Under the pieces are notes generated by a model. It was not told the DNA's origin. It did no database searches and was given only the letters and a program-made list of their open reading frames with translations. This document shows, piece by piece, positions 30,476 through 52,394 of a stretch of DNA of 54,782 bases. Position numbers and translations under genes: made by a program. Origin of the DNA: Coriobacteriia bacterium (lineage in GTDB: Bacteria; Actinomycetota; Coriobacteriia; Anaerosomatales; Anaerosomataceae); assembly GCA_030651765.1 (NCBI GenBank), contig JAUSBY010000015.1, forward strand, positions 138,043-192,824, given 5' to 3'. Within the stretch, counting starts at the first letter, position 1; each line of letters opens with the position of its first letter.

Positions 30476-31003
30476 ATGGAGCAGTACCAGACCGAGTCGC
30501 TCGACATGAGCCGGTTCCGTCAGATGTATCTCGTCGTATCGGCGCTGCCCACGATCCTGCTGCTGTTGACCTTCGTGCTGTGGATGATGCTCGAAGGACC
30601 CGGCGCGGCCGAGAGCACGGGGCCGGAGGGTATGCCCGTGTGGCAGATCGCGCTCTTCGGCGCGATAGCGCTCGCATCACTGCCCATGGCGCTGTTCGTG
30701 CGACGCCTGGGGTTCAAGACGACGGGCGACGTGATCGACCCGAAGTCAAAGAAGGTGCTCAGCGGCTCCGACGCTGTCGTGCAGCGCATCGCGTCGACGG
30801 CAATCGTCGGGATGGCGATGCCCGAGATCGGACTCCTGCTCGGCTTCGTCGCCTGCTACCTGACGGAGAACTGGCTCGTCTACGTTCCGTTTGCCGCGTA
30901 CACCATCCTCGGCTGGGCTATCATGTATCCGCGTCCGTCGCAGGTTCGTGCGTGGTACGCTCGGCAGACCGGCGCCGAGCCGGTTTCATCGATCATCTCG
31001 TAG
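30476..31003 (+). CDS. Uncharacterised membrane protein (four TM helices)
   Basis: 175 residues that I cannot assign to a family. Hydrophobic segments lie at ~17-39, ~57-74, ~110-130 and ~132-150, with a positively charged, probably cytoplasmic loop (RRLGFKTTGDVIDPKSKK) between TM2 and TM3. A GGAGGGGG ribosome site precedes ATG 30476. The next gene is ten bases away and also encodes a small membrane protein, so the two may act together. Confidence 0.75.
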   Translation: MEQYQTESLDMSRFRQMYLVVSALPTILLLLTFVLWMMLEGPGAAESTGPEGMPVWQIALFGAIALASLPMALFVRRLGFKTTGDVIDPKSKKVLSGSDAVVQRIASTAIVGMAMPEIGLLLGFVACYLTENWLVYVPFAAYTILGWAIMYPRPSQVRAWYARQTGAEPVSSIIS

Positions 31004-34520: not shown

Positions 34521-35372
34521 GTGTCGGCGATTCTTCTCGCGCAAGTGAACGTGTGGATGGACGCAGTCTTTATCCTGCTGTTCATCGGTGTGTGGTTGTT
34601 CGTCCTGTTCCACTTCTCCATCAGTATCCCTAAGGGTCGGTTCCGTAAGAAGTGGATCGAGGGCAAGTGGCCGGAGCACGATCATCTTCCGGTCTTCCTG
34701 CCCAAGCTCATGCACTGGATCCACCTGCTGTGCATGCTCGCCCTGGCGTTCAGCGGCCTGTACATTCGCTTCCCGTTCTTCGACGGCGGCCGTACGCCGA
34801 TGCGATGGGTCCACTACATCGCGATGACGATCGTCGGTCTGAACTACCTGTGGCGCCTGTGGTACGCGTTTCTCGCCAAGGGTCGCGACTACAAGAAGTT
34901 CGCCATCACCAAGCGCGACATTCAGTCTGCGCTCGGCGTGCTGGCGTACTACGGGTACTTCTCCGACAACAAGCCGCACGTGGCCGAGTACAACGTGATG
35001 CAGAAGATGTCGTACCTGCTCTTCGCTGTGCTCATGCTGGCACAGGGCTTCACGGGCCTGTCGCTGCTCACGCAGCCGATCCTGTTCGGCCTGTCGCCAC
35101 GCGAGGTCCTCATCGGCTGGTGGCTTGGCCCGCTCGTGGGTGGCGTTGCTGTCGCGGGTGCCTGGATGCGCGTGATGCACTACGCCATCAACTGGCTGTT
35201 CATCATCATGACCGTCGTGCACTTCTACCTGGCGGTCAACGAGGACTTCCTCATCGGCATGGACTTCTTCGGATTCAAGAAGTATCCCAAGGACAAGCTC
35301 GTGACGCATGGCCACGGTCACGGCGGGGAGCACGCAGCTCCTGCCGGGGCGGCGGCCCTCGAGGCGGAGTAG
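34521..35372 (+). CDS. Cytochrome b, formate dehydrogenase gamma (FdnI)/cytochrome b561-like
   Basis: 283 residues. Four or five TM helices carry His residues in heme-ligand positions (FHF ~31, MHWIHLL ~64-68, VMHYAINW ~218 and VVHFYL ~233). The segment HVAEYNVMQKMSYLLFAVLM closely matches the YNxxQKM region of FdnI, the diheme b subunit that passes electrons from formate dehydrogenase to menaquinone. The C-terminus is His/Gly/Ala rich. No other b-type subunit is next to the formate dehydrogenase 7 kb downstream, so this may serve it. It could equally couple the quinone pool to the three cytochromes c that follow. The start is GTG 34521; GTG 34551 or ATG 34557 are alternatives. Confidence 0.83.
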   Translation: MSAILLAQVNVWMDAVFILLFIGVWLFVLFHFSISIPKGRFRKKWIEGKWPEHDHLPVFLPKLMHWIHLLCMLALAFSGLYIRFPFFDGGRTPMRWVHYIAMTIVGLNYLWRLWYAFLAKGRDYKKFAITKRDIQSALGVLAYYGYFSDNKPHVAEYNVMQKMSYLLFAVLMLAQGFTGLSLLTQPILFGLSPREVLIGWWLGPLVGGVAVAGAWMRVMHYAINWLFIIMTVVHFYLAVNEDFLIGMDFFGFKKYPKDKLVTHGHGHGGEHAAPAGAAALEAE

Positions 35373-35379
35373 GAGACCT

Positions 35380-36267
35380 ATGCGCTCCCGTATCAGCCAG
35401 AGGATCGCGGCAGGGTTCTTCCTTGCCGTCGCGCTCGTGGCTCCGGCAGCCGCGTACGGCCAGGACGTATCGCCGTCGGTGTCTCCGACTGCGCCGTACG
35501 AACTCGACTTCACACTCCCCACGGAGTCGAAGTCAGGCTGTCAGGTGTGTCATGGCGACCCTGCGCTGGTGCGTGTCCGTGACGGCGTCGTGATGAGCTA
35601 CTACATCGATGACGCCACCATCGAGGTGTCCGCCCATGTCGACCAGCAGTGTGTGGGGTGCCACCTCGACTTCACGTACAAGGCGCCCCATGGCAATGGC
35701 GAGTGGGTGACGACCGCAAAGACCGCGTGTCGCAACTGCCACGAGGATCAGTCCCGGGCATTTGGCGTCGGCGTTCACCGGGCGACGGTTCCCAGCGGCA
35801 ACGGCGGATCGGTCGAGACGACGACCGCGCCAAAGCCGCTGTGCGGCGACTGTCACGGCGCGCACGACATTCTGATGCTCACGGACAACCCCGACGGCCA
35901 GGAAGCCATGCACGCCGATGGCTGGGAGGTCTGCGGGAGCTGCCACGAGGACTACTGGGACAGCTATGACGACTACTATCACGGCGCGGCCTACAAGCGC
36001 GGAGCAGAAGACGCTCCCGCGTGTTGGGACTGCCATGGGTGGCACGACATCCTTCCCTCGAGCGAGCGCGGATCGAGCGTTCACGAGTCGCACCTGGTTG
36101 AGACGTGCGGTCAGGAAGGGTGTCATGTCGGCGTCGACGAGAACTACACGTCGTACGCCGTGTTCATCCATGGTCGTCCGGAGATCACGGACGGCAATCC
36201 GCTGATCGCGCTGGTCCGTTCGGTCATCGGCGCAGTTGGCCGCCTGTTCGGCGGTGGGGGCTCTTAG
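35380..36267 (+). CDS. Seven-heme c-type cytochrome
   Basis: 295 residues with a Sec signal peptide (~1-27, cleavage near AAAYGQ). Six CXXCH sites (CQVCH, CVGCH, CRNCH, CGDCH, CGSCH, CWDCH) plus one CX4CH (CGQEGCH near the C-terminus) give seven predicted hemes c. The whole mature region parallels the second half of the next cytochrome; for example DYYHGAAYKRGAEDAPACWDCH corresponds to a near-identical stretch there. A short hydrophobic C-terminus (LIALVRSVIGAVGRLFGGG) may anchor it to the membrane. Start ATG 35380 has AGGAG upstream and lies seven bases after cytochrome b. Presumed electron transfer outside the membrane. Confidence 0.9.
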   Translation: MRSRISQRIAAGFFLAVALVAPAAAYGQDVSPSVSPTAPYELDFTLPTESKSGCQVCHGDPALVRVRDGVVMSYYIDDATIEVSAHVDQQCVGCHLDFTYKAPHGNGEWVTTAKTACRNCHEDQSRAFGVGVHRATVPSGNGGSVETTTAPKPLCGDCHGAHDILMLTDNPDGQEAMHADGWEVCGSCHEDYWDSYDDYYHGAAYKRGAEDAPACWDCHGWHDILPSSERGSSVHESHLVETCGQEGCHVGVDENYTSYAVFIHGRPEITDGNPLIALVRSVIGAVGRLFGGGGS

Positions 36268-36313
36268 GCCCCCGGACAAGCGCCTGGACTCTGGAAAGCA
36301 GGTAGCGAGGGGT

Positions 36314-37564
36314 ATGACGAAGCGATTCAGGACGCCTGCCGGCACGGGCGTACGGAGGTTGGGCATCGTGATGGCGTTTGCTATCGCGGCGTTCGTTGTG
36401 CCGGCGTTCGCCCAGACGGTGACGATCGAGGTCGGCGGTGACGTGTTCTCCGACAAGTGCAAGCCGTGTCACGCCGACTTCACACAGACCGACAATCCCA
36501 ACTACACCTTCACGCACGGCAACCACATCACGTTCCAGTGCAGCTCGTGCCATCCGATCTTCCCGCACAAGCCGGGCGGCACCGATACGCCGACGATGAA
36601 GGACTGTTTCAACTGTCACGCGCTGTACCACGGCCCGCAGGGCGTACTCGCCAAGGGCGACTGCGAAGCATGCCATGGCAACAAGCTTCCCGATCTGCGG
36701 CCGGCGAACCATACCTTCGACTGGGCCAAGACGCCGCACGTGGAGCCTGCCAACAACGAACTCACGACGCTGTGTTCGATGTGCCACGTCAAGAACGACT
36801 GCGACGTGTGCCACGTGCAGGAGCGCGTGGCGTGGTCGCCTCCGGTACCCATGGTCTACGAGGCGGGCACCGGCTGTCTGGCGTGTCACGGCAGCCCGAA
36901 CCTCATCAAGAGCTCCTCGGAGGGAATCGTGTCCTTCCAGGTCACCGGTCTCGAGTCCTCGGCGCACCGCGACCTTGCGTGCCCGGACTGTCACATCGAC
37001 TTCCTGTACACGGAGCCCAAGCCGCCGACGCGGGTGTGGTACGTCAACGCGGGGATCTCGTGCGCCAATGGCGGTTGCCACGACCACGACGAGCAGGCTG
37101 ATGCGTATGCGGGCTCGGTGCACGCCGAGTTGGTCGCCGAGGGCGACTACACGGCCGCCACGTGCGGGTCATGCCACGGCGGTCACGACATCGCCCGGCT
37201 CGACACGCAGGCCGCGATCGACGCGCTGCACCTATCCAGCGAAGCCATGTGCGCCGAGTGCCATGAGGACCAGTGGGACAACTACGGCGACGCCTACCAC
37301 GGCGCGGCGTACAAGCGTAAGGCGATGGACGCTCCCGCATGTTGGGACTGTCATCCCGCCCACGAGGTTCTCGCTTCGGACGACCCCGACTCGACGACGA
37401 ACGCTGCCAACATCGGCGAGACGTGCGCTTCGTGCCACGAGCAGCACGGCGATGCGGGCGAGGAGTTCGCCAGGTTCTCGGCTGAGATGATCCACCGTCA
37501 GGAGGAACTGCGCGCCGACAACCTGCTCCACAAGGTCCTGTCGCTGCTACCGGGAGGTAACTAG
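36314..37564 (+). CDS. Thirteen-heme c-type cytochrome (six-heme + seven-heme modules)
   Basis: 416 residues with a signal peptide (~1-34, ending AFAQ). It has twelve CXXCH and one CX4CH (CANGGCH). Residues 49-168 hold six sites (CKPCH, CSSCH, CFNCH, CEACH, CSMCH, CDVCH) in an arrangement found twice in the next gene. Residues ~188-385 hold seven more and match the upstream seven-heme protein. Interestingly the CX4CH is the third site of this module, while in the upstream protein it is the seventh. Many extra His residues could give bis-His ligation. Start ATG 36314 is placed by the signal peptide and a GCGAGGGG site. Confidence 0.9.
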   Translation: MTKRFRTPAGTGVRRLGIVMAFAIAAFVVPAFAQTVTIEVGGDVFSDKCKPCHADFTQTDNPNYTFTHGNHITFQCSSCHPIFPHKPGGTDTPTMKDCFNCHALYHGPQGVLAKGDCEACHGNKLPDLRPANHTFDWAKTPHVEPANNELTTLCSMCHVKNDCDVCHVQERVAWSPPVPMVYEAGTGCLACHGSPNLIKSSSEGIVSFQVTGLESSAHRDLACPDCHIDFLYTEPKPPTRVWYVNAGISCANGGCHDHDEQADAYAGSVHAELVAEGDYTAATCGSCHGGHDIARLDTQAAIDALHLSSEAMCAECHEDQWDNYGDAYHGAAYKRKAMDAPACWDCHPAHEVLASDDPDSTTNAANIGETCASCHEQHGDAGEEFARFSAEMIHRQEELRADNLLHKVLSLLPGGN

Positions 37565-37570
37565 CGGTTC

Positions 37571-39160
37571 ATGACGAGACGCTCGCGCGGACGTATGGCG
37601 ATCATCACGGCGGTGGCCCTCGCGGCTGCCGTCGTGGTGGTGCTTGCCTACCCGCGCGGCGCCGCGAGCGCCGAGTCGCGCACGATAACGGTCAGCGCGC
37701 CCGCGTCCACCGCCTCGTGCATGTACTGTCACCCGACACTGGGCGGGAGTGACCGCGGCGATCTTGTCTTCGATCACGCGACGCACATCGTCGCCCAGTG
37801 CGCCGCGTGCCACTACGGTCCGGCGCATGCCGAAGGCGCGTCGCCGACGCCGCCGATGGACTCGTGTTTCACCTGCCATGACCTGCGTCACGGCCCTCAG
37901 GAACTGCTCGCCTCGGGCGAGTGCCGGTCCTGTCACCCCGAGCCGGCGCCGCTTCGGCCGGCCACACATGTCGAGGACTGGCGTGACGAGCCCCACGCGC
38001 TTGCTTCGGGTGAGGGCGTGAACCGATGCATGATGTGCCACGATGCGCCGGCCGACTGCGACAGCTGCCACACCGACGAGGGCGTGGACGTCGGGCCGAT
38101 GCCGGCGATATACCTGAGCACGGTGCCGCAGGTCTCGGCCGAGCCGACGGTCACCATCGACCCGGACGGCCCCGTTACGATGGCCCAGTGCACGTACTGT
38201 CACTTAGATATCGATGACTTCGACGTGGACGGCCTGATTTTCGGCCACGGCGCGCATCTCGAGCGCGCGTATCGCTGCGAGTCGTGCCACCCCGTCTTCC
38301 CGCACGGACCCGGGGGCACCCAGCGCATCGAGATGCGCTCGTGCTACCGGTGTCACAGCCTCGTTCACGACGGTCACGGCGAGGTCGCGACCGGCGAGTG
38401 CGAGAAGTGCCACACCGAAGACTTCGAGCTCATCCCGCCGGACCACACCCTGGAGTTCCTGACCGGCGAGCATCGTGAGCCTGCGCTCGAAGACGCCGCA
38501 TACTGCAGCCAGTGTCATACTTCCGAGTCTTGCGTGGCGTGCCACAATGGCGGCGTCGAGATGGCTGACGGGACCGAGAGCCTCCCGGTCATCCCCGCAG
38601 ACCACCGCAAGCCGCAGTGGGCCTCGGAGCACGGTGGGCTGTTCTTAGCGCAGGAAGGCCTGTGCGCCGTCTGTCACGAGCCGGCAAGCTGCCAGACGTG
38701 TCACCTCACCACGATGCCTCATCCCGGCACATGGATGACCGACCACGCGAAGATGAACGGGTCGCTCACCAACGACTGCCAGGTGTGCCACACGGATCGC
38801 GAGTTCTGCCAGGACTGCCATCACGACTCGGTCCGTTCGGTTGCGCTGATCCCGGAGAACTGCGTAGAGTGCCACGAGGAGATGAACACCGAGCCCGCCA
38901 CGGCGATCAAGGTCGCGGGTCTCGCCGAGCACGCTGTGCACTTCATAGTCGAGGAGAAGAAGGGCGAACCCTACTACTGCGATGATTGCCACATCGGGTT
39001 CGGCTCGGGCGGCATCCACGTCGTCAGCGCGGCCACCGGACCGCACGACATGCGCGTCTGCTACGAGTGCCACGGCGCGCTCGATTACCAGAACATACTC
39101 ATCGCACCGTACCGTGGGTCCGAACTTTGCTTACGGTGTCATACGGACCTCAATATCTGA
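37571..39160 (+). CDS. Twenty-heme c-type cytochrome (two six-heme modules plus eight-heme tail)
   Basis: 529 residues with an N-terminal signal/anchor (~9-34, GRMAIITAVALAAAVVVVLAY). Twenty CXXCH motifs are present. Residues 50-167 and 207-325 are two copies of the six-heme module also found in the upstream cytochrome, sharing CH-x2-FPHGPGGT and the spacing MxxCxxCHxLxH. Residues ~350-529 hold eight further sites. Heme density (one per ~26 residues) is typical of electron-wire cytochromes. No CXXCK, so no NrfA-like catalytic heme is indicated. It sits six bases after the previous gene. Confidence 0.9.
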   Translation: MTRRSRGRMAIITAVALAAAVVVVLAYPRGAASAESRTITVSAPASTASCMYCHPTLGGSDRGDLVFDHATHIVAQCAACHYGPAHAEGASPTPPMDSCFTCHDLRHGPQELLASGECRSCHPEPAPLRPATHVEDWRDEPHALASGEGVNRCMMCHDAPADCDSCHTDEGVDVGPMPAIYLSTVPQVSAEPTVTIDPDGPVTMAQCTYCHLDIDDFDVDGLIFGHGAHLERAYRCESCHPVFPHGPGGTQRIEMRSCYRCHSLVHDGHGEVATGECEKCHTEDFELIPPDHTLEFLTGEHREPALEDAAYCSQCHTSESCVACHNGGVEMADGTESLPVIPADHRKPQWASEHGGLFLAQEGLCAVCHEPASCQTCHLTTMPHPGTWMTDHAKMNGSLTNDCQVCHTDREFCQDCHHDSVRSVALIPENCVECHEEMNTEPATAIKVAGLAEHAVHFIVEEKKGEPYYCDDCHIGFGSGGIHVVSAATGPHDMRVCYECHGALDYQNILIAPYRGSELCLRCHTDLNI

Positions 39161-39190
39161 CGCATCCCTGGATGGATTGAAGGTGTGAAC

Positions 39191-40195
39191 GTGTCGTCTG
39201 TCTCCCGTGACCCCTGGCTCGAATGGGCCCTCAGGATCGTCGGCGTGCTTGTCATCGGCGCGCTGGCGTTCCTCGCGTACACGGTCTGGCAGGGTGAGCG
39301 GCAGGCGAAGCAGGGCTCGCTCGCCTCACGTGCCATCGCCACGCTCGAGGAGCAGGTACGCAAGAACCCGCAGAATCCGGACTATCGCGTCTTGCTTGGC
39401 GACGCATTCCGTGACATCGGTAGTCACGCCTCGGCGATCGAGCAGTACGACGCCGCCCTTGAACTCGAGCCAGACAACCCGAGCGCGATGAGCGGCCTGG
39501 CGCTGGTGGCGATGAACCGGCAGGAGTGGCGCACCGCGGAGGGGTACTGGCAGCAGGCGGTCGAGGTGCTGTCCAAGAACAAGTTCGCCGCCCAGGACCT
39601 GCGTCTGGAGAAGGCGTACTACTACTACGGCTTGACGCTCATACAGGTGGCCGAGTACGAGGACGCGGTCGCCTATCTCAAGGAGGCTCTGCGTATCAAG
39701 CGGAGTGACGCGGACACGCACTATGCACTCTCGGTCGCCTATCGCGAACTCGACTCGATCCCCAACCAGCGCAGCTCACTCGAGGCCGCCCTGGCGTTCG
39801 TGCCCTCGATGCCCGAGGCTAACTATGACCTCGGACTGCTGCTCGTCGCCGACGGCGACGAGGCGGGCGCTGCCGAGCTGTTCCGCCGCGCCGCCGACAA
39901 CTTCCCCGGCAAGCCCGAGCCGTTAGCCGAGCTCGAGAAGCTGGGTCCGTTCGAGGACCGGATTGTCGCCGCCCAGGGGCTCGTGGCGAGCGATCCGGCG
40001 GCCGCACTTATCGAGGGACGCGTTGCTCTCGCCCTCGAACCTGATAGTCTCGACGCGGCCCGCCTTGTTGCGCGGCTGCTGCAGCAGCTCGCAGAGCCCG
40101 ACGAGGCGAAAGCCGCGTGGGAGCGCGTGCTCGACATGGCACCGGAAGACCCCGAGGCTACCGAGGCGCTTGAGGCCCTCGGCAGTGACGCGTGA
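39191..40195 (+). CDS. Membrane-anchored tetratricopeptide-repeat protein
   Basis: 334 residues. One N-terminal TM helix (~14-36) is followed by about seven TPR-like helical pairs (PQNPDYRVLLGDAFRDIGSHASAIEQYDAALELEPDNPSA onward). The layout (TM then TPRs, beside cytochrome c genes) resembles the TPR half of CcmH/NrfG-type heme-lyase helpers, so a role in maturing or assembling the multiheme cytochromes is a reasonable guess but not shown. The start is GTG 39191 behind GAAGG; GTG 39185 is an alternative. The end overlaps a possible upstream start of the next gene. Confidence 0.82.
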   Translation: MSSVSRDPWLEWALRIVGVLVIGALAFLAYTVWQGERQAKQGSLASRAIATLEEQVRKNPQNPDYRVLLGDAFRDIGSHASAIEQYDAALELEPDNPSAMSGLALVAMNRQEWRTAEGYWQQAVEVLSKNKFAAQDLRLEKAYYYYGLTLIQVAEYEDAVAYLKEALRIKRSDADTHYALSVAYRELDSIPNQRSSLEAALAFVPSMPEANYDLGLLLVADGDEAGAAELFRRAADNFPGKPEPLAELEKLGPFEDRIVAAQGLVASDPAAALIEGRVALALEPDSLDAARLVARLLQQLAEPDEAKAAWERVLDMAPEDPEATEALEALGSDA

Positions 40196-40215
40196 CGCAG
40201 AGGGAGCGTGAATTC

Positions 40216-41760
40216 GTGACGGAACGTTCCACCGCCGATATCGGACGCTACGCGACGGAGCGGCGCAAGCGAAGCCGTGTGGTCAGGATCGCGCTGCTCG
40301 TCCTTCTCGTGCTCATACTCATGCTGCTCGCGTGGTCGGCGATGTACTACGCCGCCAACAGGAGGCTGCCGTTCCCGGTGGTCGAGTCGGTGGCGGGAGA
40401 TACCGTCAGAGCGCCCGAATTCCTCTACGCGATCTCCGGACCGGAGGGCGGAGACGCTCTTGCTCAGCCGGTCGGCGTGGCGGTCACCGCCGACGAGTTG
40501 GTGTTCGTTGTGGACGCCAAGGATCGTGTGGTGCGGTCGTATCACGCCGACGGCCGATACCGCTTCAGCTTCAACACCATCGTCAGCGACAAGGGCAGCG
40601 CGCTCGGTCTGCCGGCGCGCGTGACCATCGGCCCCGACGGGAACGTCTGGGTCACCGACCGCCGCCTCGGCAGTATCTTCGTCTTCGATCCCGATGACGG
40701 GTCGTTCGTGCGCGAGTTCATTCCCAACAGCGACGTCGTGGACACGTGGCGCCCGATCGCTCTGGCGTTCAACGCCGACGGCGACCTGTACGTCGCCGAC
40801 CTCGGACTCAACAAGCTCCACCGCATCGTCGCTTTCGATAGGGACGGCAACGAGATCGCGCGTTGGGGCAGCACCGTGCAGACCACCCATATCACCCAGG
40901 CGCCCGGAGGCTTCTACTATCCCAACGGGATCGCCTTCTCCGCCAACGGTGACGTCTTCGTCACCGACATGAGCAACCATCGGGTGCAGATCTTCACCGC
41001 CACGGGTGAGTACAAGTACCTCGTTGCTACCTCGGGCTCGCCGCTCGGTATCGTCATCGATCCCGACCAGCGCATGTATGTGGTGGACCCGTTCGCGCAC
41101 CTGGTGGACATCTACGAGCTCGACGGCGCGCGCATCACCGGCTTCGGCGGCCCGGGTCTCTCGCTCGGTCGCTTCCGCTTTCCGAGCGACATCGCGCTCG
41201 ACGAGGCTGGCCGGATGTTCGTCTCCGACCGCGAGAACAACCAGGTCCAGGTCTGGGGCTGGCCGAGCGGCATCATTCCGCCCATCGATCTGCCCGATCA
41301 GCCGCTCGAGTGGGTGTTCTGCCTCTCGCCGTTGCTGTTGCTGCTCATCCCGCTCCTGCGCCGCCGTACGTCGTTCATGACGATGCCTGACTTCATCGAG
41401 GCGATGATCGTGATCGAAGCGGTGCCGAAGATGGACGACCGCAAGTACAAGTGGCTCGTCACCGAGCCCGTCTGGGACGCGTACGCGGATCAGGCCTCCG
41501 ACGGTGTCCGCTTCGAGGACCTGCTTCACGGCGAGAGCTATTCGCGCACGGACGTCGAGGACATGATCGAGAAGTCCGGCATCGACGAGGCGACCGCGAT
41601 CGTGCTCACGATGGCCGAGCGTGCGGGCCGTCTCGCAACCGAGGATCCGGTGCTGGCCGAGGCCGCAGCGGCCCTCGATATCCCGGTCGTCAGCCGTGAG
41701 CGATTCCTTAAGGAATACGCCGCTCGCCGTACGAGCAGAACCGCTCGACGGAGCGAATAG
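40216..41760 (+). CDS. NHL-repeat beta-propeller membrane protein with C-terminal PIN-like cytoplasmic domain
   Basis: 514 residues. After a basic N-terminus come one TM helix (~21-43), an extracytoplasmic six-bladed NHL propeller (~65-350; repeats such as PNGIAFSANGDVFVTDMSNHRVQIF and PSDIALDEAGRMFVSDRENNQVQVW), a second TM helix (~364-382) and a ~120-residue cytoplasmic tail. The tail (GIDEATAIVLTMAERAGRLATEDPVL, AAALDIPVVSRERFL) reads like the second half of a PIN domain, although the first catalytic Asp is not evident. I chose GTG 40216 (GAGGGAG upstream); GTG 40192 overlapping the previous stop is possible. It shares its propeller layout with the protein encoded at 51107. Confidence 0.82.
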   Translation: MTERSTADIGRYATERRKRSRVVRIALLVLLVLILMLLAWSAMYYAANRRLPFPVVESVAGDTVRAPEFLYAISGPEGGDALAQPVGVAVTADELVFVVDAKDRVVRSYHADGRYRFSFNTIVSDKGSALGLPARVTIGPDGNVWVTDRRLGSIFVFDPDDGSFVREFIPNSDVVDTWRPIALAFNADGDLYVADLGLNKLHRIVAFDRDGNEIARWGSTVQTTHITQAPGGFYYPNGIAFSANGDVFVTDMSNHRVQIFTATGEYKYLVATSGSPLGIVIDPDQRMYVVDPFAHLVDIYELDGARITGFGGPGLSLGRFRFPSDIALDEAGRMFVSDRENNQVQVWGWPSGIIPPIDLPDQPLEWVFCLSPLLLLLIPLLRRRTSFMTMPDFIEAMIVIEAVPKMDDRKYKWLVTEPVWDAYADQASDGVRFEDLLHGESYSRTDVEDMIEKSGIDEATAIVLTMAERAGRLATEDPVLAEAAAALDIPVVSRERFLKEYAARRTSRTARRSE

Positions 41761-41861: not shown

Positions 41862-41867
41862 TACAAT
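41862..41867 (+). promoter_or_regulatory. -10 element of proximal promoter (TACAAT)
   Basis: TACAAT matches the -10 consensus at five of six positions and would start transcription near 41874, exactly where the folded leader begins (GCGTC). A TTGGACA at 41836-41842 is a poor -35 at 19-20 bases. The hexamer overlaps the right arm of the AGCCCACT/AGTGGGCT dyad, so a repressor or activator bound there would affect initiation. Confidence 0.45.
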
Positions 41868-41873
41868 GGCATA

Positions 41874-42054
41874 GCGTCTCCGAGCTTGTCGGCCTAAAGC
41901 GATGTGATCGCCACGGACTTCAAGCCGATAGGGTGTCACAGGAAACCATGACGCCTCCCGTATTTGGAAAGGAGACCTGCGGGCAAGCCCCCCGGCAAGG
42001 GGCTGCGTGCGGTGTACTCATCAGGGGTAAGGGAGGCGAGCCGATATGGCTGAA
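41874..42054 (+). promoter_or_regulatory. Structured leader RNA, candidate riboswitch (Moco/Tuco class suspected)
   Basis: Pairings I can trace: outer stem GCGTC 41874-41878 with GACGC 41950-41954; inner stem TGTCGGC 41887-41893 with GCCGATA 41924-41930; hairpin GCGAT-GTG-ATCGC 41899-41911. A second domain is closed by CGCCTCCC 41952-41959 with GGGAGGCG 42031-42038 and contains AGCCCC/GGGGCT. A small hairpin AGCC-GATAT-GGCT (42039-42051) precedes the terminator. Single-stranded CCTAAA and GGAAACC look like conserved ligand-contact segments. Because the next gene encodes a molybdopterin/tungstopterin enzyme, the Moco/Tuco class is my best guess, but I cannot run a covariance search and do not claim the class. 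Confidence 0.5.
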
Positions 42055-42233: not shown

Positions 42234-45200
42234 ATGGCTACAAGAGATCAAGATTCAGGAGGGAAGTTCCAGCTCTCACGTCGCGACTTTGTGAAAGTCG
42301 GCGCGGCTGCAGCTGCCGCGGGCGCCGTGGGCGTTGACTGGGCTGTCGCGCCTTCACGCGCGAACGCGGCCGACGTCGCGCACACGTACTCGACGACATG
42401 CCCGTACTGCTCTGCGCAGTGCGGCCAGCAGGTCGACGTTGCGGCTGACGGAACGGTGCTGGACATCTACGGCGATCCGAACAACCCCACAAGCCGTGGT
42501 GGCCTTTGCGCCAAAGGTGCAGGCGCCTACCAGCTGGTGACCAACGAGCGTCGCATCGGCGTGTCAGAGCACACGGCGGCTGTCGACGGCTTCGACTTCA
42601 CCGGCCAGGCATGGAAGCGTGTCGGTGATAGCGCCTGGACGGCCATGACGCTCGATGCTGCGATGACCGAGATCGCACCCAAGCTCGTTGCGGCACGCGG
42701 TCCGGTGGCCGATGCCGATACGCTGTACGACCTCTTCACCGCTGGCGATGTTGTCGACGAGGTGACCTACACCGGTTTCTCGGGTCTCACAACCATCAAG
42801 CTAGCCGATGGCAGCTACATGGTCGCGACCAACGGCAACAAGGCGACGCCAACCGAGCTTGCAGTTCTGGCCGCCGGCCTCCCGGGTTCGGCTGCAGCCT
42901 ACGTTGCCGCCTTCGACGGCCTTGTGTTCAAGGCCACGGATCCGGCCTGGAAGGCCAGCTACACCTTCGTCGGTCGCTCGGACCTCGGTGCGAAGATGCT
43001 TGCAGCCGGGGTTTTCGCGAACACCGCCGATATCGTGGTCGACGCCGGCGTGTACTATGCCTACGTCGTGGCCGTTACCGGCGAAATGCACGTGCTCACC
43101 TCGCCGGACATGCTGGTGTGGACGTACGACGCCCCACTTGGCAAGCCGGCCAGCGTTGGCACGATGACGTCGCCGACCGTTCTGAAGAGCGGCGCGAACC
43201 TCAAGGTCTGGTACGTCGATATCGTCGCGCAGAAGCTCCAGTATGCGTCGTTCGATGGCTCGGCGTGGTCGGCGGCCACCAACGTGACCGTCGGAGGCAG
43301 CGACCCCATCTGGTTCGTCGGCCATCCCGTCGTCTCGGCTACCAGCGCTGAGTACACTCTGTACTACGTTCTCGGTAGCGGCGGCATCAAGAAGGCCATT
43401 GCTCCGGTTGCCACGCCGGCCGTATTCGCGGCTGCAACGAACGTGTATGACGGCGCGGCGAAGTCCGAGGGCAACGTCAGCCTGGCCGCGAGCGGCATCT
43501 GCTTCTCGACCTACGCGCAGCCGGATGACGACGATATCGGGTGGGCATACAGCGATATCAAGGGCCTCGCGTTCAGCAACAACAACAACGCTCGTACGGT
43601 TATGTTCTTCGGCTCCTCTCACATGAACAACGAGCCGAACAACCTGTACCGCAAGATCATCGCCACCTTCGGTACCAGCCTGACCGAACATCAGGCCCGT
43701 ATATGACACTCGTCCACAGTGGCCGGTCTTGGCCGCACATTTGGACGAGGCGCGATGACGAACAACTGGGTGGACCTCGGATTCTCGACCTGCTTCATCG
43801 TCCAGGGCGCCAACCCCGTTGAGAACCACCCCGCGTCGATTGCGCACCTGAACTCGGCACGGTTCGACACCAACGGCCGCGGCCGCAACGCCGCTCTCGT
43901 TGTCATCGATCCTCGCCAGACCCGTACCGCCCGCATGATCAAGGCGGGGTACGACTCGACGAACACGAACGACATGCGCAAGCACGATCGCTTCGTGCGC
44001 ATTCGTCCGGGAACCAACGTCGCATTCAACAACGGCGTACTCAACTCCATCATCACGTGGATGTACGCCAACCCGACGGACCAGCGGTCCATCAACTTCT
44101 TCGCGTGGCACAACGGGACCGCAGACAACTCGCTTGCCACCCGCGCAGTCACCGCAGATGACGGCTTGGCATCCTCGGTTGCCGCCTGGCCCAAGTACTG
44201 CGACACGCGACTCAAGACCAACGCGACGGGTACGGACTACCAGCGCGAGACGGTCACCGGCGTTAACGGCAAGGCGATCTCCAACTTCCCGGTGCGGGCT
44301 GCGAACATCGAAGATGCCGAGTGCGTGTTCCAGCGTCTCAAGGCCCACGTCGCGAAGTACACGGCGGCGATCACCGCGGACATCTGCGGTTGCACCGAGG
44401 CCGATATCGCGGCCGTGCGGGACGCCTACATCGATAACAGCCGCTTCGCCAGCTCGGACTTCGGCGCTGCGGCGATGACGCAGAACGCTGCCGGCTACCG
44501 CGCCGCATGCATCATGTACGCGATGGGTGCCACGCAGTTCACGACCGGCTCGCAGGGCGTCCGCGGGTACGCGCAGATCCAGACGATCATGGGCAACATG
44601 GGGCGTGCTGGCGGCGGCATCAACGCGCTGCGCGGCATCCACAACGTCCAGGGTTCGACGGACATGGGCGTGCTGTTCGACCTGATCCCCGGCTACTCGG
44701 GGAACCCGGGCGTGGGCACCACGTACCCGAACTACTCGAACGCTCTGTTCGGCAACCGGGTGGTGGGTACGACGACGAACAGCCCGTACGTCCCGGCCAA
44801 TCTCGGTCTGCAGCAGCGCGGCTTCTACAACATGACGACCGCGTGGTTCGGCGAGCAGCAGGATGCTGTTGACACCTACAGCTCCGCTGACTTCGAGGCG
44901 CTGTACGCATGCTGGCCGAAGGGCAACGGCGTGCAGCACATCGAGTCGTTCCGCCGGATGTGCCCGACCGCTGCCGAGAATCCGACGGCCGCGTACCACT
45001 ACGCACCCACCGCCGCCGCCCCGCGCATCAGCGCGTGCGTCGTGTGGGGTCAGAACCCTGCCATTACCGAGCCGAACCAGAGCGCGGTCCGCACGGGTCT
45101 GTACAACCTCGACCTGCTGGTCGTGACGGACATGTTCGCCAACGAGACCGCGCAGTGCTCGCGCAAGTCGACTGGTGTCACATACCTGCTCCCCGCATGC

Positions 45201-46517
45201 TCGCATGTGGAAGAGTCCGGTTCGGTCACCAGCTCGGGCCGCTGGATCCAGTGGCGCGATCGTTGCCGTGCTCCCAAGGACAACAGCAAGTCGGATCTCG
45301 AGTTGCTGCTCAAGTTCGCCAAGGCCCTTGATGGTGCCAACGCGTTCAGCCACATCGAGGCCCGCTGGGCCACGATGACCAACAAGCCGGTCGGCTCCGC
45401 CTACAATGTACTGTACGGCAAGTACGGTTGGGACGGCACCGGCTCCATGGAGGCCATCAGCCTTCCTGACGCCGAGGGCGTCACGCTCAAAGGCAGCGAG
45501 CACGTAGCCGAGCAGATCTTCAAAGAGATGTGCTCACCGCTCAACGCCACGACGGGTATCCAGGGCACGCTCTGGATCTACTCGGGCAACGACACCGCGA
45601 GCGCGTACAACGCTGCCACGGGCGACAACAACCCGGCCGTCGGCATCAACTGGGGCAAGGCCAACCGCGCCAAGTCCCGCGCCGGTGCGTACGCGCAGGC
45701 GGGCACCTCCGGTCAGTACGCGCGCTACGGCTGGGCATGGTTGCTCAACCGCCGGATCTTCTACAACAACAGCGAGCTGGCTGGCGACGTCAACGACGTC
45801 TTCGTGGCTCCGGGCTTCATCGCGAGGATTCTCACCATCAACACCAACACTCTGGCCGACTGGTCGACCCTGTACCGGGCCTACAACACCCTCGCCGATA
45901 TGCCTGACGTTGGCACGAGCACCGGGATGCACGTCTACCCCGGCCGCTTCCCGGCCTACACCGAGCCGTACGAGTCGCCTCGTCCGGATCTGGTCACCAA
46001 GTGGGGCAAGAACACGGCGAATGGCTCTGCGCTGATCTTTGCGGACTCACCGGTGGGAGCGGTTGCGGACTTCCCGCTTGTGCTCACCAGCATTCGCTGC
46101 GTCGAGCACTTCCAGGGCGGCCCGATCACCCGCAACAACGCGTGGAACGTGGACGCGGAGCCCGATCCGTGGATCGAGATCAACTCGGCCGATGCCATCA
46201 AGTACGGCATCGCGGACGGCATGTGGGTCAACGTCATCACCGCGCGTGGCGACAGCATCCACACCCAGGAGGCCCTGACCGCCGGCGGCGCGCTCGCGCC
46301 GGTAGCCAACTGGACCAAGGGTTTCAAGGCGCGTGTGGGCGTCGGTACGCTGGCTAACCAGCGTGTCGCTCCCGGCACCGTCGCGATCCCGTGGCACTGG
46401 GGTGATCGTGGACTGGGCGTTGGTGCTCGTGCCAACGACCTGTGTATCGACTCGTGGGATGCCAACACCATGATTCCCGAGTTTAAGGCCTGTCTGTGCA
46501 AGATCGAGAAGGCATAA
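42234..46517 (+). CDS. fdnG: Selenocysteine formate dehydrogenase alpha subunit (FdnG/FdoG-like) with inserted propeller-like domain
   Basis: 1427 residues, read through UGA 43704-43706 as selenocysteine 491. Tat signal SRRDFVK (15-21) shows export of the folded protein. [4Fe-4S] ligands are Cys56, Cys59, Cys63 and Cys92, with CAKG after the last. The context around Sec is HQAR-I-U-HSSTVAGLGRTFGRGAMTN, matching FdnG, where Sec is residue 196. The C-terminus (PEFKACLCKIEKA) also matches FdnG. Residues ~157-450 are extra: a beta-rich segment with repeats like TSPTVLKSGANLKVWYVD and GVYYAYVVAV, resembling a five-bladed propeller. A SECIS hairpin follows the UGA. Without Sec read-through the gene would be mis-split into two ORFs of 490 and ~930 codons. 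The enzyme oxidises formate outside the membrane using bis-MGD Mo or W. Confidence 0.93.
43704..43749 (+). promoter_or_regulatory. Sec UGA codon and bacterial SECIS element
   Basis: The in-frame TGA (43704-43706) is followed by a lower stem CTCGTCC 43709-43715 with GGACGAG 43743-43749. An internal loop leads to the upper stem GTG/CAC and GCC/GGC (3' bulge of two bases) with apical loop GGTCTT (43725-43730). The GGUCU apex and the 18-base distance from UGA to it agree with my memory of the E. coli fdhF SECIS that binds SelB. The sequence also has to encode HSSTVAGLGRTFG, which explains the bulges. Confidence 0.9.
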
Positions 46518-46533: not shown

Positions 46534-47409
46534 ATGGCTAACGTGATGGCAATTCTCCAGGATTCCGACAAGTGCATGCGTTGCAACGGATGCGTCGTCA
46601 GCTGCAAGCGGACGTGGAAGATGAAGGTCCCGGTAGAGGAGTTCGGCCGTGGTAAGACCTCTCCCGGACGCCGGGTCGTCATCAAGTCCCAGAAGCGGGT
46701 CGACAATGGTCCGTTCATGCGTTACAGCTGCTGGCACTGCCAGAACCCGCCGTGCATCAAGCGCTGCCCGTTCAAGGCGATCACCAAGAAGGAAAATGGC
46801 GCCGTTGCGATCGATTACAACCTCTGCCAGCCTGGTGGCGTTAACGCCGCAGGCGTGCAGTGCGTGCGTCAGTGCCAGATCGACTGCGGACGCGGTGGCT
46901 ATCCGAAGATCGGCGAAGGCAGCGACCTTGTTGCCGGTTCCAAGGCGTGGAAGTGCACGCTGTGCTTCGGTCGTGCTGGTAGCGGTGACAGCCTCGATTC
47001 CGCGGCTGGTCCCGCTCTGCCGACCAAGGCCTCCGCAGCAGAGATCACCGCTGTGGCCGAAAAGGCTCACCAGCCTTCGTGCGTTTTCACCTGCCCGGCG
47101 AACGCCATGATGTGGGACACGCGGGATAATGTCCGCGCCTACATCAACTCCGGCCCCATCGCTTCTGGTGGCCAGGGCTTCATCTCCGCGCAGGGCGACG
47201 GCAGCGTCTACTGGGCAAGCAGGAAGAGTCTGCTCCTCGCTCCCAAGGCTGATCCGTTCGTCGAAGACCACGTCACCCCGCTCATCTCTAGTGTAGTATC
47301 GAGCCAGTTCGCCAAGGCCGCGCTCGTACCGGCGGCTCTCGGCGGCGGTCTGCTTGCACTCATCGTGCGGCGCCAGCGTCTGGCTGACGAGTCGATGGGG
47401 GAGGTGTGA
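46534..47409 (+). CDS. fdnH: Formate dehydrogenase beta-like four-[4Fe-4S] subunit (FdnH-like, divergent)
   Basis: 291 residues. Sixteen Cys fit four clusters: C14/17/20/24, C66/69/74/78, C98/110/114/118 and C141/144/183/187. The first two are near-canonical (CMRCNGCVVSC, CWHCQNPPCIKRC). The third has eleven residues between its first two Cys instead of two, and the fourth has a ~30-residue Ser/Ala insert. A hydrophobic C-terminal helix (~258-276) would anchor it, as in FdnH. There is no Tat signal, so it presumably travels with the alpha subunit. Strong site GGGGAGGTGG precedes ATG 46534. It passes electrons from the alpha subunit to a quinone-reactive or multiheme partner. Confidence 0.88.
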   Translation: MANVMAILQDSDKCMRCNGCVVSCKRTWKMKVPVEEFGRGKTSPGRRVVIKSQKRVDNGPFMRYSCWHCQNPPCIKRCPFKAITKKENGAVAIDYNLCQPGGVNAAGVQCVRQCQIDCGRGGYPKIGEGSDLVAGSKAWKCTLCFGRAGSGDSLDSAAGPALPTKASAAEITAVAEKAHQPSCVFTCPANAMMWDTRDNVRAYINSGPIASGGQGFISAQGDGSVYWASRKSLLLAPKADPFVEDHVTPLISSVVSSQFAKAALVPAALGGGLLALIVRRQRLADESMGEV

Positions 47410-48650
47410 TGATGCAGGTGAGGAAGCGTTCATTGATCTTCGCGGCCCTGGTGGTCGCAGCGGTAATGGTCATGGCACCTGGTGTCGCGATGGCCAACTA
47501 CTCGATCCACGGTAGCTACACCATGAGCACCGATGCGTGCGCCGGTTGTCACCGCGCACACACCGCCTCAAGCCCGATCACGTGGGAGAACACTGCCGGT
47601 GAAGACCGCAGCGCGTTGCTCATCTCGACCGCTGAGACGATCGACGAGTTCTGCTACACGTGCCACGGTGCGGGCATGCTCGGTGCCGACACTAACGTGT
47701 ATGACGGCGTGTTCGAGGCCAACGACGGTGACGACACCGGTGAAGACCGTGTGTACAACACCGCCGGTGAGTCGCTGAACGGTGGCGGCTTCGACCCGGT
47801 CATGTTCCCGACGCAGCACTATGCGAGCGGCGTGGACTGGGTCGCCTACGGCGCGGGACCAGATGGCCAGGACGGCGCCATCAGCACGGGTGGCGAGCAG
47901 GTCTACATCTCCTGCGGCGTGTGCCATGACGTGCATGGTTCGTCCAACTACCGTCTCCTGAAAGACGTCGTCGCCGGTATCGATCCGGTCTCCGGCGCCC
48001 AGGCCCCCATCACGGTCGGTGGCTACACGGGAGATCCGGTCAACCCGACGCCGACCCCGTGGGTCATCTCGTCTGAGGTAGGCTATCCCACCGGCGGCTG
48101 GCTGCTCCACGAGCCCGGCGCGACCCAGGTGGCAGGCTACCGCCCTGACTACACGACCCCCCGGTACGCCAAGGCTCCCGGTGGCGACGTGACCAAGGGT
48201 ATCAGCGCATGGTGTGCGGCGTGTCACACGCAGTACAACACCATGGGTGATGACGGTATGTATGTCGCTTCGACGTATGACGCCAACGACGGCTTCGGTC
48301 TCGTGACGCGTCACCGTCACCCGGTCAACGTCGCGCTCACCGAATACCTTGGTGCGCGGGCGCTTGTTGTGACCGACAACGTGCTTCCGCTGGCGCACGA
48401 TGCTAGCGAAGCCGGCTCCTGGACTCAGGAAGACACCGACTGGCTCGACTGCCTGACCTGCCACGTGGGTCACGGCTCCGGTGCCCTCATGACCGGGTAT
48501 GCCGCTGTTGCGGACACCAGGGACCCGCAGCCTGACTCGAGCTACGGCCTTGTGCCTGGCGACGGTCTCGGCTCGGTTCCGCCGGACGATGGCAACGCAC
48601 TCCTGCGGATGGATAATCGCGGTGTGTGCGAGGCCTGCCACAACAAGTAG
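47409..48650 (+). CDS. Six-heme c-type cytochrome of the formate dehydrogenase operon
   Basis: 413 residues with a signal peptide (~1-29, ending AMA). Six CXXCH sites: CAGCH and CYTCH near the N-terminus, CGVCH, CAACH, CLTCH, and CEACH six residues from the end. Spacing is wide, with long loops, unlike the compact cytochromes upstream. It resembles loosely packed cytochromes with doubled-CXXCH motifs. It shares a base with the fdnH-like stop (ATG 47409; a second ATG follows at 47412, and GTG 47406 is also in frame). It is a likely direct acceptor from the Fe-S subunit, because no cytochrome b gene is adjacent. Confidence 0.87.
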   Translation: MMQVRKRSLIFAALVVAAVMVMAPGVAMANYSIHGSYTMSTDACAGCHRAHTASSPITWENTAGEDRSALLISTAETIDEFCYTCHGAGMLGADTNVYDGVFEANDGDDTGEDRVYNTAGESLNGGGFDPVMFPTQHYASGVDWVAYGAGPDGQDGAISTGGEQVYISCGVCHDVHGSSNYRLLKDVVAGIDPVSGAQAPITVGGYTGDPVNPTPTPWVISSEVGYPTGGWLLHEPGATQVAGYRPDYTTPRYAKAPGGDVTKGISAWCAACHTQYNTMGDDGMYVASTYDANDGFGLVTRHRHPVNVALTEYLGARALVVTDNVLPLAHDASEAGSWTQEDTDWLDCLTCHVGHGSGALMTGYAAVADTRDPQPDSSYGLVPGDGLGSVPPDDGNALLRMDNRGVCEACHNK

Positions 48651-51106: not shown

Positions 51107-52363
51107 ATGACGGCTTCGGCCCGGCGCGACCGGCGTCCGGACGGCCCAAGGAGCGCGCGTCGCAGACGCGCGTGGCCTCGTAGGCTGCGCGATCACCTGC
51201 GTGGCCTCGACCGCCCGAGGAAGACCGCGCTCATCGTCGGGCTCGTGCTCGTGCTCGGCGGCGTGCTCCTCATTGTGCTGGCGCCACCGCCGACGACAGC
51301 CATCCCCACCATCGGCACGCCGCGCGAAGACGCGCCGCAGCTCCGCTACATCCGCTCGCTTCCCGATGCCGGGGACCCGGTGCTCTCGCGTCCCGTCGGC
51401 GTGGCGGTCGGCGGATCGTACCTGTACGTGGCCGATTCGGGAGACGCGGTGGTGCGTGTCTTCTCCACCGCAGGGCCGGACGCCGGCGAGATCGGCCGCG
51501 GAGCGCTTAAGGTGCCGACGTACCTTGCGCGCGACATGACCGCGGGAACGCTGCTCGTGACCGACCGCGAGTTGCGCGCGGTGCTGCGCTTCGGCGAGGA
51601 CGGCGAGCCGCTCGGCGAGATCGTGCCGTCCGTGGAGACGAGCGCCACGTGGGAGCCCCTGGGGATCGCTGTCGACGGGCATGGCGCCGTTGCGGTGACC
51701 GACACCTCGGCGACGCACAGGGTGCTCCTGATGGACAGGGCCGGCCAGGTGCGGCGGACCTACGGCGGCCCTGTGAGCGCGGGCACCGCCGGTGGCGTGA
51801 GCGTGTCGCTTGACTACCCCAACAGCGTCGGCTTCTGGGGCGAGGACCTGTGGGTGGCGGATTCCAACAACCGCAGGGTGCTCGTGTTCGACGCTGAAGG
51901 CGCGATGAAGCGCCTGATCCGCGTGGACGGCATCGCCCGTGGCCTGGCCCTGCTCGAAGGCGAGAGCGAGGACGACCGCTTCGTGGCGGTAGCCGATGCG
52001 CTCACGAGCGAGATCGTGCTGCTCGATGCCGAGGGCGCTGAGGTCACCCGCTACGGCGGGCCCGGTGGCTCCGCGGGGCAGCTGGCATACCCCAACGACG
52101 TGGTGTTCGATGCTCGTACGGGGCAGCTGTTCATCGCCGACACGGGCAACGCGCGCGTCCAGGTGTGGGGCGTGACATGGCCGGACGAGAGTGACGGTCC
52201 GTTGATCTCGTTGCCGGAGTCTATTCTCTCGGCAATGAGCTTGGCGGGCGCTCTGCTGATGGCGGTGGGCATCGCGCTTGCTGGTATAGCGCTATGGCCG
52301 CGTCGTGAGGCGCGGAGTACGATCGACGAGGTGGGCGATATCGAGTCGTTCACGGCCGACTGA
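51107..52363 (+). CDS. NHL-repeat beta-propeller membrane protein (second copy)
   Basis: 418 residues. The very basic N-terminus (RRRRAWPRRLRDHLRG) is followed by a TM helix (~41-60), an NHL six-bladed propeller (~80-360; repeats such as PVGVAVGGSYLYVADSGDAVVRVF, YPNSVGFWGEDLWVADSNNRRVLVF, YPNDVVFDARTGQLFIADTGNARVQVW) and a C-terminal TM helix (~375-397). The layout and several blades correspond to the protein at 40216, but the cytoplasmic tail here is only ~20 residues and lacks the PIN-like part. ATG 51107 (TTG 51104 in frame). Such propellers often accompany multiheme cytochromes and may scaffold them. Confidence 0.84.
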   Translation: MTASARRDRRPDGPRSARRRRAWPRRLRDHLRGLDRPRKTALIVGLVLVLGGVLLIVLAPPPTTAIPTIGTPREDAPQLRYIRSLPDAGDPVLSRPVGVAVGGSYLYVADSGDAVVRVFSTAGPDAGEIGRGALKVPTYLARDMTAGTLLVTDRELRAVLRFGEDGEPLGEIVPSVETSATWEPLGIAVDGHGAVAVTDTSATHRVLLMDRAGQVRRTYGGPVSAGTAGGVSVSLDYPNSVGFWGEDLWVADSNNRRVLVFDAEGAMKRLIRVDGIARGLALLEGESEDDRFVAVADALTSEIVLLDAEGAEVTRYGGPGGSAGQLAYPNDVVFDARTGQLFIADTGNARVQVWGVTWPDESDGPLISLPESILSAMSLAGALLMAVGIALAGIALWPRREARSTIDEVGDIESFTAD

Positions 52364-52394
52364 CGGCGACCGGCATCGCCGAGACGGAGTCCGC

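What the first reader, a model, noticed from the sequence alone, without database searches (positions are those of the whole stretch)
42702..43590. About 295-residue propeller-like domain inserted in the formate dehydrogenase alpha subunit
Relative to E. coli FdnG (Sec196), Sec here is residue 491. The extra sequence lies between AARG (~156) and ARTVMFFGSS (453), that is between the N-terminal Fe-S domain and the Sec loop. It is beta-rich with repeated motifs (VYYAYVVAV...TSPDMLVWTY; TSPTVLKSGANLKVWYVD; GSAWSAATNV) resembling five-bladed glycosidase-type propellers. I know of no formate dehydrogenase with such an insertion; it might bind a partner cytochrome, a sugar or the cell wall.
Basis: partly seen in the sequence, partly recalled or inferred. 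Interest (0 to 1): 0.85.

Follow-up and report, generated by a model that had tools for sequence, protein, structure and literature searches.

The report
Formate dehydrogenase with inserted propeller domain
A formate-oxidising enzyme encoded beside iron-respiration-type cytochromes carries an extra sugar-enzyme-like propeller domain of about 290 residues that close relatives lack, and the whole enzyme body, not just the domain, appears to have been swapped in by recombination.

Summary
FdhA (42234-46517, Sec491) holds about 294 extra residues (157-450) without any sequence match in Pfam, NCBIfam, PHROGs or the PDB. A modest AlphaFold model (pLDDT 67, pTM 0.73) is a GH43/GH117/GH130-type propeller (VIA Z 13.9). 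Of 43 FdhA sequences (some partial) from the same order, four carry it at this site, on four separate branches; G003 carries a homologue at a second site (hhalign E 6e-17). It was found nowhere but in FdhA among 398 genomes of the class. Against congener G001 the flanking ~27 kb is mostly 90-98% identical, but identity falls to about 78% over the mature FdhA (four-fold sites 0.58 versus 0.79-0.94 elsewhere in the operon) and recovers at the stop codon: the mature-FdhA cassette was exchanged, which can explain why only one congener has the insert. Other FdhA of this operon carry different beta domains resembling phage-virion types; the genomes' second, FdnGHI-like FdhA keeps constant length. 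Most likely the propeller is a non-catalytic binding or docking module of a surface formate dehydrogenase-cytochrome conduit; ligand and function are inferred, not shown.

The parts
42702..43583 (+). Inserted GH43-like beta-propeller domain (FdhA residues 157-450)
   Evidence: Absent from most orthologues; model pLDDT 66.8, pTM 0.73; Foldseek/VIA hits to GH43/GH117/GH130 propellers
42234..46517 (+). fdhA, molybdopterin/selenocysteine formate dehydrogenase-like catalytic subunit, 1427 residues
42234..42371 (+). Tat signal peptide (residues 1-46); identical in congener G001, five-prime edge of the exchanged cassette
42381..42542 (+). N-terminal Fe4S4 domain (residues 50-103)
   Evidence: Pfam PF04879
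43704..43706 (+). Selenocysteine TGA codon (residue 491)
   Evidence: sub-threshold SECIS_3 match at 43701-43759
42372..46517 (+). Mature-FdhA segment, about 78-89% nucleotide identity to G001 against mostly 90-98% outside it (exchanged cassette, contains the insert)
41866..41990 (+). Molybdenum/tungsten (Moco) riboswitch upstream of fdhA
   Evidence: Rfam RF01055, 78.5 bits, E 1e-18
46534..47409 (+). FdhB-like 4Fe-4S subunit
47406..48650 (+). 6-heme c-type cytochrome
37571..39160 (+). 20-heme c-type cytochrome
36236..37564 (+). 12-heme c-type cytochrome
35308..36267 (+). 6-heme c-type cytochrome
39185..40195 (+). TPR protein
40192..41760 (+). NHL-repeat propeller protein

Best explanation
FdhA is the exported selenocysteine catalytic subunit of a formate dehydrogenase encoded with FdhB and 6-, 12- and 20-heme cytochromes. 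A loop between its Fe-S domain and its Sec domain has been replaced by a GH43-superfamily beta-propeller that does not look catalytic. The propeller moves between FdhA alleles by homologous recombination: in this genome it most likely arrived with an exchange of the entire mature-FdhA cassette (shown: the mosaic; inferred: direction and donor). A homologous propeller sits at another FdhA site in a relative, so positions also change. Its likely job (inferred) is that of an appended binding or docking module outside the membrane, holding the dehydrogenase to a cell-envelope glycan or to another protein of the conduit, without taking part in formate chemistry.
For: Fold: insert model matches GH130/GH43/GH117 propellers at VIA Z 13.9 over 231 residues and Foldseek E 4e-7; the G003 propeller models weakly the same way (Z 9.2). 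Mobility: 4 changes forced by starred branches on a 40-FdhA tree; G000-G013 insert 69% against body 55%, while G027 and G048 inserts are 36-38% at body 55-57%; second site in G003. Cassette exchange. Dispensable: most orthologues lack it while keeping the same operon. Non-catalytic: one acidic residue (D76) invariant in the five copies, no glycosidase Pfam match. Under constraint: 69% protein identity at saturated synonymous sites. Specific to this operon: the FdnGHI-like paralogue spans 1055-1099 residues in 17 cases against 1126-1512 here.
Against: No ligand or partner identified. Model confidence is moderate, and residues 255-304 (the last blade) are below pLDDT 50, so five blades is an inference from the structural relatives. 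The three-carboxylate test rests on a 5-sequence alignment. Which congener changed and who donated the cassette are unknown, and the exchange was seen in one close pair only. Formate activity itself is by similarity only (TIGR01553 383 bits, cut-off 814).
Confidence: 0.55

Rival explanations
1. The propeller docks a protein of the same operon (20-heme cytochrome, 6-heme cytochrome or NHL protein) and routes electrons, rather than binding a glycan.
For: Operon order 6-/12-/20-heme, TPR, NHL, FdhA, FdhB, 6-heme is kept in carriers and non-carriers; the propeller family was found only inside FdhA in 398 genomes of the class.
Against: Insert-free FdhA sit in the same operon, and the partner genes of G000 and insert-free G001 are mostly 95-98% identical in protein (FdhB and the last cytochrome 87%), so partners did not visibly co-change.
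Confidence: 0.27
2. The insert is a tolerated passenger: surface loops of this FdhA accept beta domains with no useful function, and recombination spreads them.
For: Patchy presence and several unrelated domains at different loops; no clustering on the tree.
Against: The insert is 69% conserved between G000 and G013, more than the body, at saturated synonymous sites; the paralogous FdhA in the same genomes has no such inserts.
Confidence: 0.2
3. The propeller was ancestral to the FdhA of this order and was lost in most lineages.
For: The same insertion site in four genera of three families.
Against: Needs roughly a dozen losses against four gains on the tree (my count); insert and body divergences disagree; the congener pair shows cassette exchange.
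Confidence: 0.1
4. The domain is an active glycosidase or sialidase fused to the enzyme.
For: Nearest folds are glycoside hydrolases and phosphorylases.
Against: No conserved set of three carboxylates over the five copies; no glycosidase HMM match.
Confidence: 0.06

Closest known systems
GH43/GH62/GH117/GH130-type glycoside hydrolase and phosphorylase propellers
   Same: Predicted fold over about 230 residues; S-x-D-x-L-x-W-T motif
   Different: No Pfam match, no conserved catalytic triad found, sits inside a molybdoenzyme
FdnG/FdhA selenocysteine formate dehydrogenases (E. coli FdnGHI 1KQF; Desulfovibrio FdhAB 8CM4, 9QM0)
   Same: Tat signal, Fe4S4 domain, HQARIUHSSTV motif, FdhB partner
   Different: Inserted propeller; no cytochrome b gene found next to it but multiheme cytochromes; about 40% identical over part of its length to the FdnG-like paralogue of the same genome
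Ig-like and CBM-like appended domains of tailed-phage virion proteins
   Same: Exchangeable beta domains added to surface loops of unrelated proteins; two such types occur in FdhA of relatives (G034, G054)
   Different: The host protein is a cellular redox enzyme; the propeller itself was not found in phage sequences
Anaerosomatales Es71-Z0120 multiheme/molybdopterin cluster MCL4079376-90 (PMC9686372)
   Same: Multiheme cytochromes with a molybdopterin oxidoreductase presumed to be formate dehydrogenase, in an Fe(III) reducer
   Different: No inserted domain is mentioned in the passages read

Membership tests
GH43-superfamily propeller (fold) | Glycosidase-type (five-bladed) propeller fold | tested here: met
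   VIA Z 13.9, 231 residues, rmsd 3.7; last blade of the model low confidence, so blade number inferred
GH43 or GH32 enzyme | Match to the family HMM | tested here: not met
   Five copies, no Pfam glycosidase match up to E 5
GH43 or GH32 enzyme | Conserved Asp/Asp/Glu catalytic triad | tested here: inconclusive
   Only D76 is an invariant acid in five copies; D98, D140, E260 and D289 are kept in the four site-1 copies; no structure-based superposition of active sites
GH43 or GH32 enzyme | Glycosidase activity | not testable with these tools
   Needs biochemistry
FdnG-type formate dehydrogenase | Tat signal, Fe4S4 domain, Sec/His active-site motif | tested here: met
FdnG-type formate dehydrogenase | TIGR01553 equivalog cut-off | tested here: not met
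   382.8 bits against 814.2
FdnG-type formate dehydrogenase | FdnI cytochrome b subunit in the operon | tested here: not met
   No cytochrome b among the genes scanned beside fdhA; a cytochrome b-like gene is next to the paralogue (my reading)
Phage-borne mobile domain | Propeller found in phage or prophage proteins | tested here: not met
   No PHROG, INPHARED or IMG/VR match by sequence; only general fold matches in BFVD

The most novel reading that the evidence does not exclude
The mature catalytic subunit of this surface formate dehydrogenase is a cassette under recombination and diversifying pressure (for example from phages or from changing wall glycans), exchanged between signal peptide and stop codon and decorated with interchangeable glycan-binding domains of kinds shared with prophage virion proteins, much as tail and capsid proteins are.
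Probability: 0.25. Interest if true: 0.8.

Novelty: new variant of a known kind. Interest (0 to 1): 0.6.

Why it matters
Molybdenum formate dehydrogenases are regarded as structurally conservative enzymes. Here one lineage tolerates whole binding-type domains in several loops and exchanges the mature catalytic subunit between near-identical genomes. That offers a natural experiment on how a respiratory enzyme is tied to the cell surface and to long heme conduits in Gram-positive bacteria, and a test of whether redox enzymes can behave like variable surface proteins. It also names loops of formate dehydrogenase that accept a 300-residue domain, useful for building enzyme-electrode fusions.

Tried and rejected
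Insert in Pfam, NCBIfam, PHROGs, PDB by sequence: no match (PDB profile search best E 0.15). IMG/VR and INPHARED: no relative. Standalone donor: in 396 phylum genomes only one weak match, a GH32/GH43-like lipoprotein (G182, E 1.3e-4); in the class none outside FdhA. Foreign base composition: insert GC 0.636 and GC3 0.816 match the gene, so composition gives no hint of recent import. Recent transfer between G000 and G013 from synonymous sites: saturated, no signal. Intein: termini lack intein motifs (by eye). Hypervariable fdhA in other close pairs: G002/G012 shows none and G008/G015 only local dips, so the cassette exchange is shown for one pair only. G040 weak match (L037) holds a stop in frame and was not seen again by HMM. 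INPHARED search with the G034 Ig-like domain: no match at E 0.01, so its phage link rests on PHROG profiles.

Full report
WHAT IS THERE. The window encodes a 1427-residue selenocysteine FdhA at 42234-46517 (Sec491). Pfam places the Fe4S4 domain at 50-103 and the molybdopterin domain from 449 on; nothing is recognised in between.

FOLD. The insert has no sequence match in Pfam, NCBIfam, PHROGs or the PDB. AlphaFold2 on a 4-sequence alignment gave pLDDT 66.8 and pTM 0.73, with residues 255-304 unreliable. Foldseek ranks GH159 and GH43 enzymes first (E 4e-7 to 1e-6); VIA-align gives Z 13.9 over 231 residues to a GH130-type phosphorylase, with GH43 and GH117 enzymes tied. This is well above the usual background quoted by the tool. 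The domain is therefore a glycosidase-type propeller; five blades is inferred from those relatives. Across five copies only D76 is an invariant acidic residue, so a glycosidase active site is not evident.

DISTRIBUTION. Among the 69 genomes of the order, HMM search finds the domain in five, always in FdhA (one further sub-threshold hit, G003:C7 at E 0.04, lies in no propeller-like gene), and in 398 genomes of the class no further case. Four copies share this site (G000, G013, G027, G048). In G003 the homologue (hhalign 98.8%, E 6e-17 over 230 columns against the site-1 profile) sits after residue 828 instead; its weaker model again matches GH43 propellers (Z 9.2). G027 carries on one contig both an insert-bearing and an insert-free FdhA. 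On a 40-FdhA tree the four site-1 carriers require four changes, all forced by strongly supported branches.

MOVEMENT. G000 and G013 inserts are 69% identical although their bodies are 55%; G027 and G048 inserts are 36-38% identical to G000 although their bodies are 55-57%. Insert and body thus have different histories. The congener G001 shows how a change can happen: over about 27 kb it matches the window mostly at 90-98%, but inside the mature FdhA identity falls to 89, 85 and 78% along the gene and the insert is absent, then returns to 97-100% just past the stop codon at 46517. Four-fold sites are 0.58-0.63 identical in the mature FdhA, against 0.94 in its Tat signal and 0.79-0.93 in the other seven operon genes tested. 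Low synonymous identity confined to one coding segment means replacement by a divergent allele, not merely fast amino-acid change. In this genome the propeller most likely came with such an exchange, or was kept while G001 exchanged its copy; direction is unknown. Other close pairs do not show a comparable block, so generality is open.

OTHER DOMAINS. Five FdhA sequences of the operon carry the propeller and three carry other inserts: G034 (93, 66 and 65 residues), G011 (79) and G054 (54). The G034 66-residue and G054 domains match the phage major-tail-protein Ig-like family phrog_807 (E 7e-5 and 8e-8), and the G034 65-residue domain matches a phage head-decoration family (E 2.6e-7) and weakly CBM5/12. 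The same CBM-like domain lies in a prophage major head protein of G003 (56% identical) and in tail-sheath and tail-terminator proteins of G065. The propeller itself was not found in phages.

CONTROL. The same genomes encode a second, FdnGHI-like FdhA (in G000 followed by an Fe-S subunit and a cytochrome b-like gene, outside the window). Its open frames span 1055-1099 residues in 17 cases, against 1126-1512 for 36 FdhA of the cytochrome operon. Insert acceptance belongs to the operon enzyme, not to the FdhA fold as such.

CONTEXT. The operon holds 6-, 12- and 20-heme cytochromes, TPR and NHL proteins, a Moco riboswitch (RF01055, 78.5 bits), FdhA, FdhB and a 6-heme cytochrome, and is kept in carriers and non-carriers. 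Relatives' records are named Coriobacteriia, Actinomycetes or Actinomycetota. A cultivated Anaerosomatales (OPB41) iron reducer has a similar cluster with multihemes and a molybdopterin subunit presumed to be formate dehydrogenase (PMC9686372); placing this genome in that order is my inference. NHL and TPR proteins in such clusters have been proposed to help assemble extracellular electron-transfer complexes (PMC10376724).

MECHANISM. Shown: a propeller in a loop, patchy, at two sites, discordant with the body, and a mosaic mature FdhA. Inferred: it is a binding or docking module on the outside of the membrane that ties the dehydrogenase to an envelope glycan or to a conduit partner and leaves catalysis alone. 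Near-identical partner genes in an insert-free congener argue mildly for an envelope ligand over an operon partner. Likelihood of the docking-or-binding reading about 0.55 overall.

NOVELTY. No paper in the searched library links formate dehydrogenase with a propeller insertion. Both parts are known kinds; the combination, the two sites and the cassette exchange make it a new variant.

Noticed in passing
window 41866-41990 (+): Molybdenum/tungsten cofactor riboswitch (RF01055, 78.5 bits) in the leader of fdhA.
   Followed up: yes
L085 (G034:C14:1-14288), FdhA: This relative's FdhA carries three other inserted beta domains, two of them resembling phage virion domains.
   Followed up: partly
L076 (G003:C3 around 82659) and L077 (G065:C45 around 1119): A CBM5/12-like domain is inserted in a prophage major head protein, a tail sheath and a tail terminator; a 56% identical relative of the first sits in the G034 FdhA.
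   Followed up: partly
L059 (G027:C316): Two fdhA copies on one 12-kb contig, one with and one without the propeller.
   Followed up: no
window 30601-30900 and 52200-54300: Further local dips in identity to congener G001 (75% and 70-90%) in an otherwise about 94% identical stretch.
   Followed up: no
window 43701-43759 (+): Sub-threshold SECIS_3-like element (33.6 bits, gathering 63) directly at the Sec codon.
   Followed up: no
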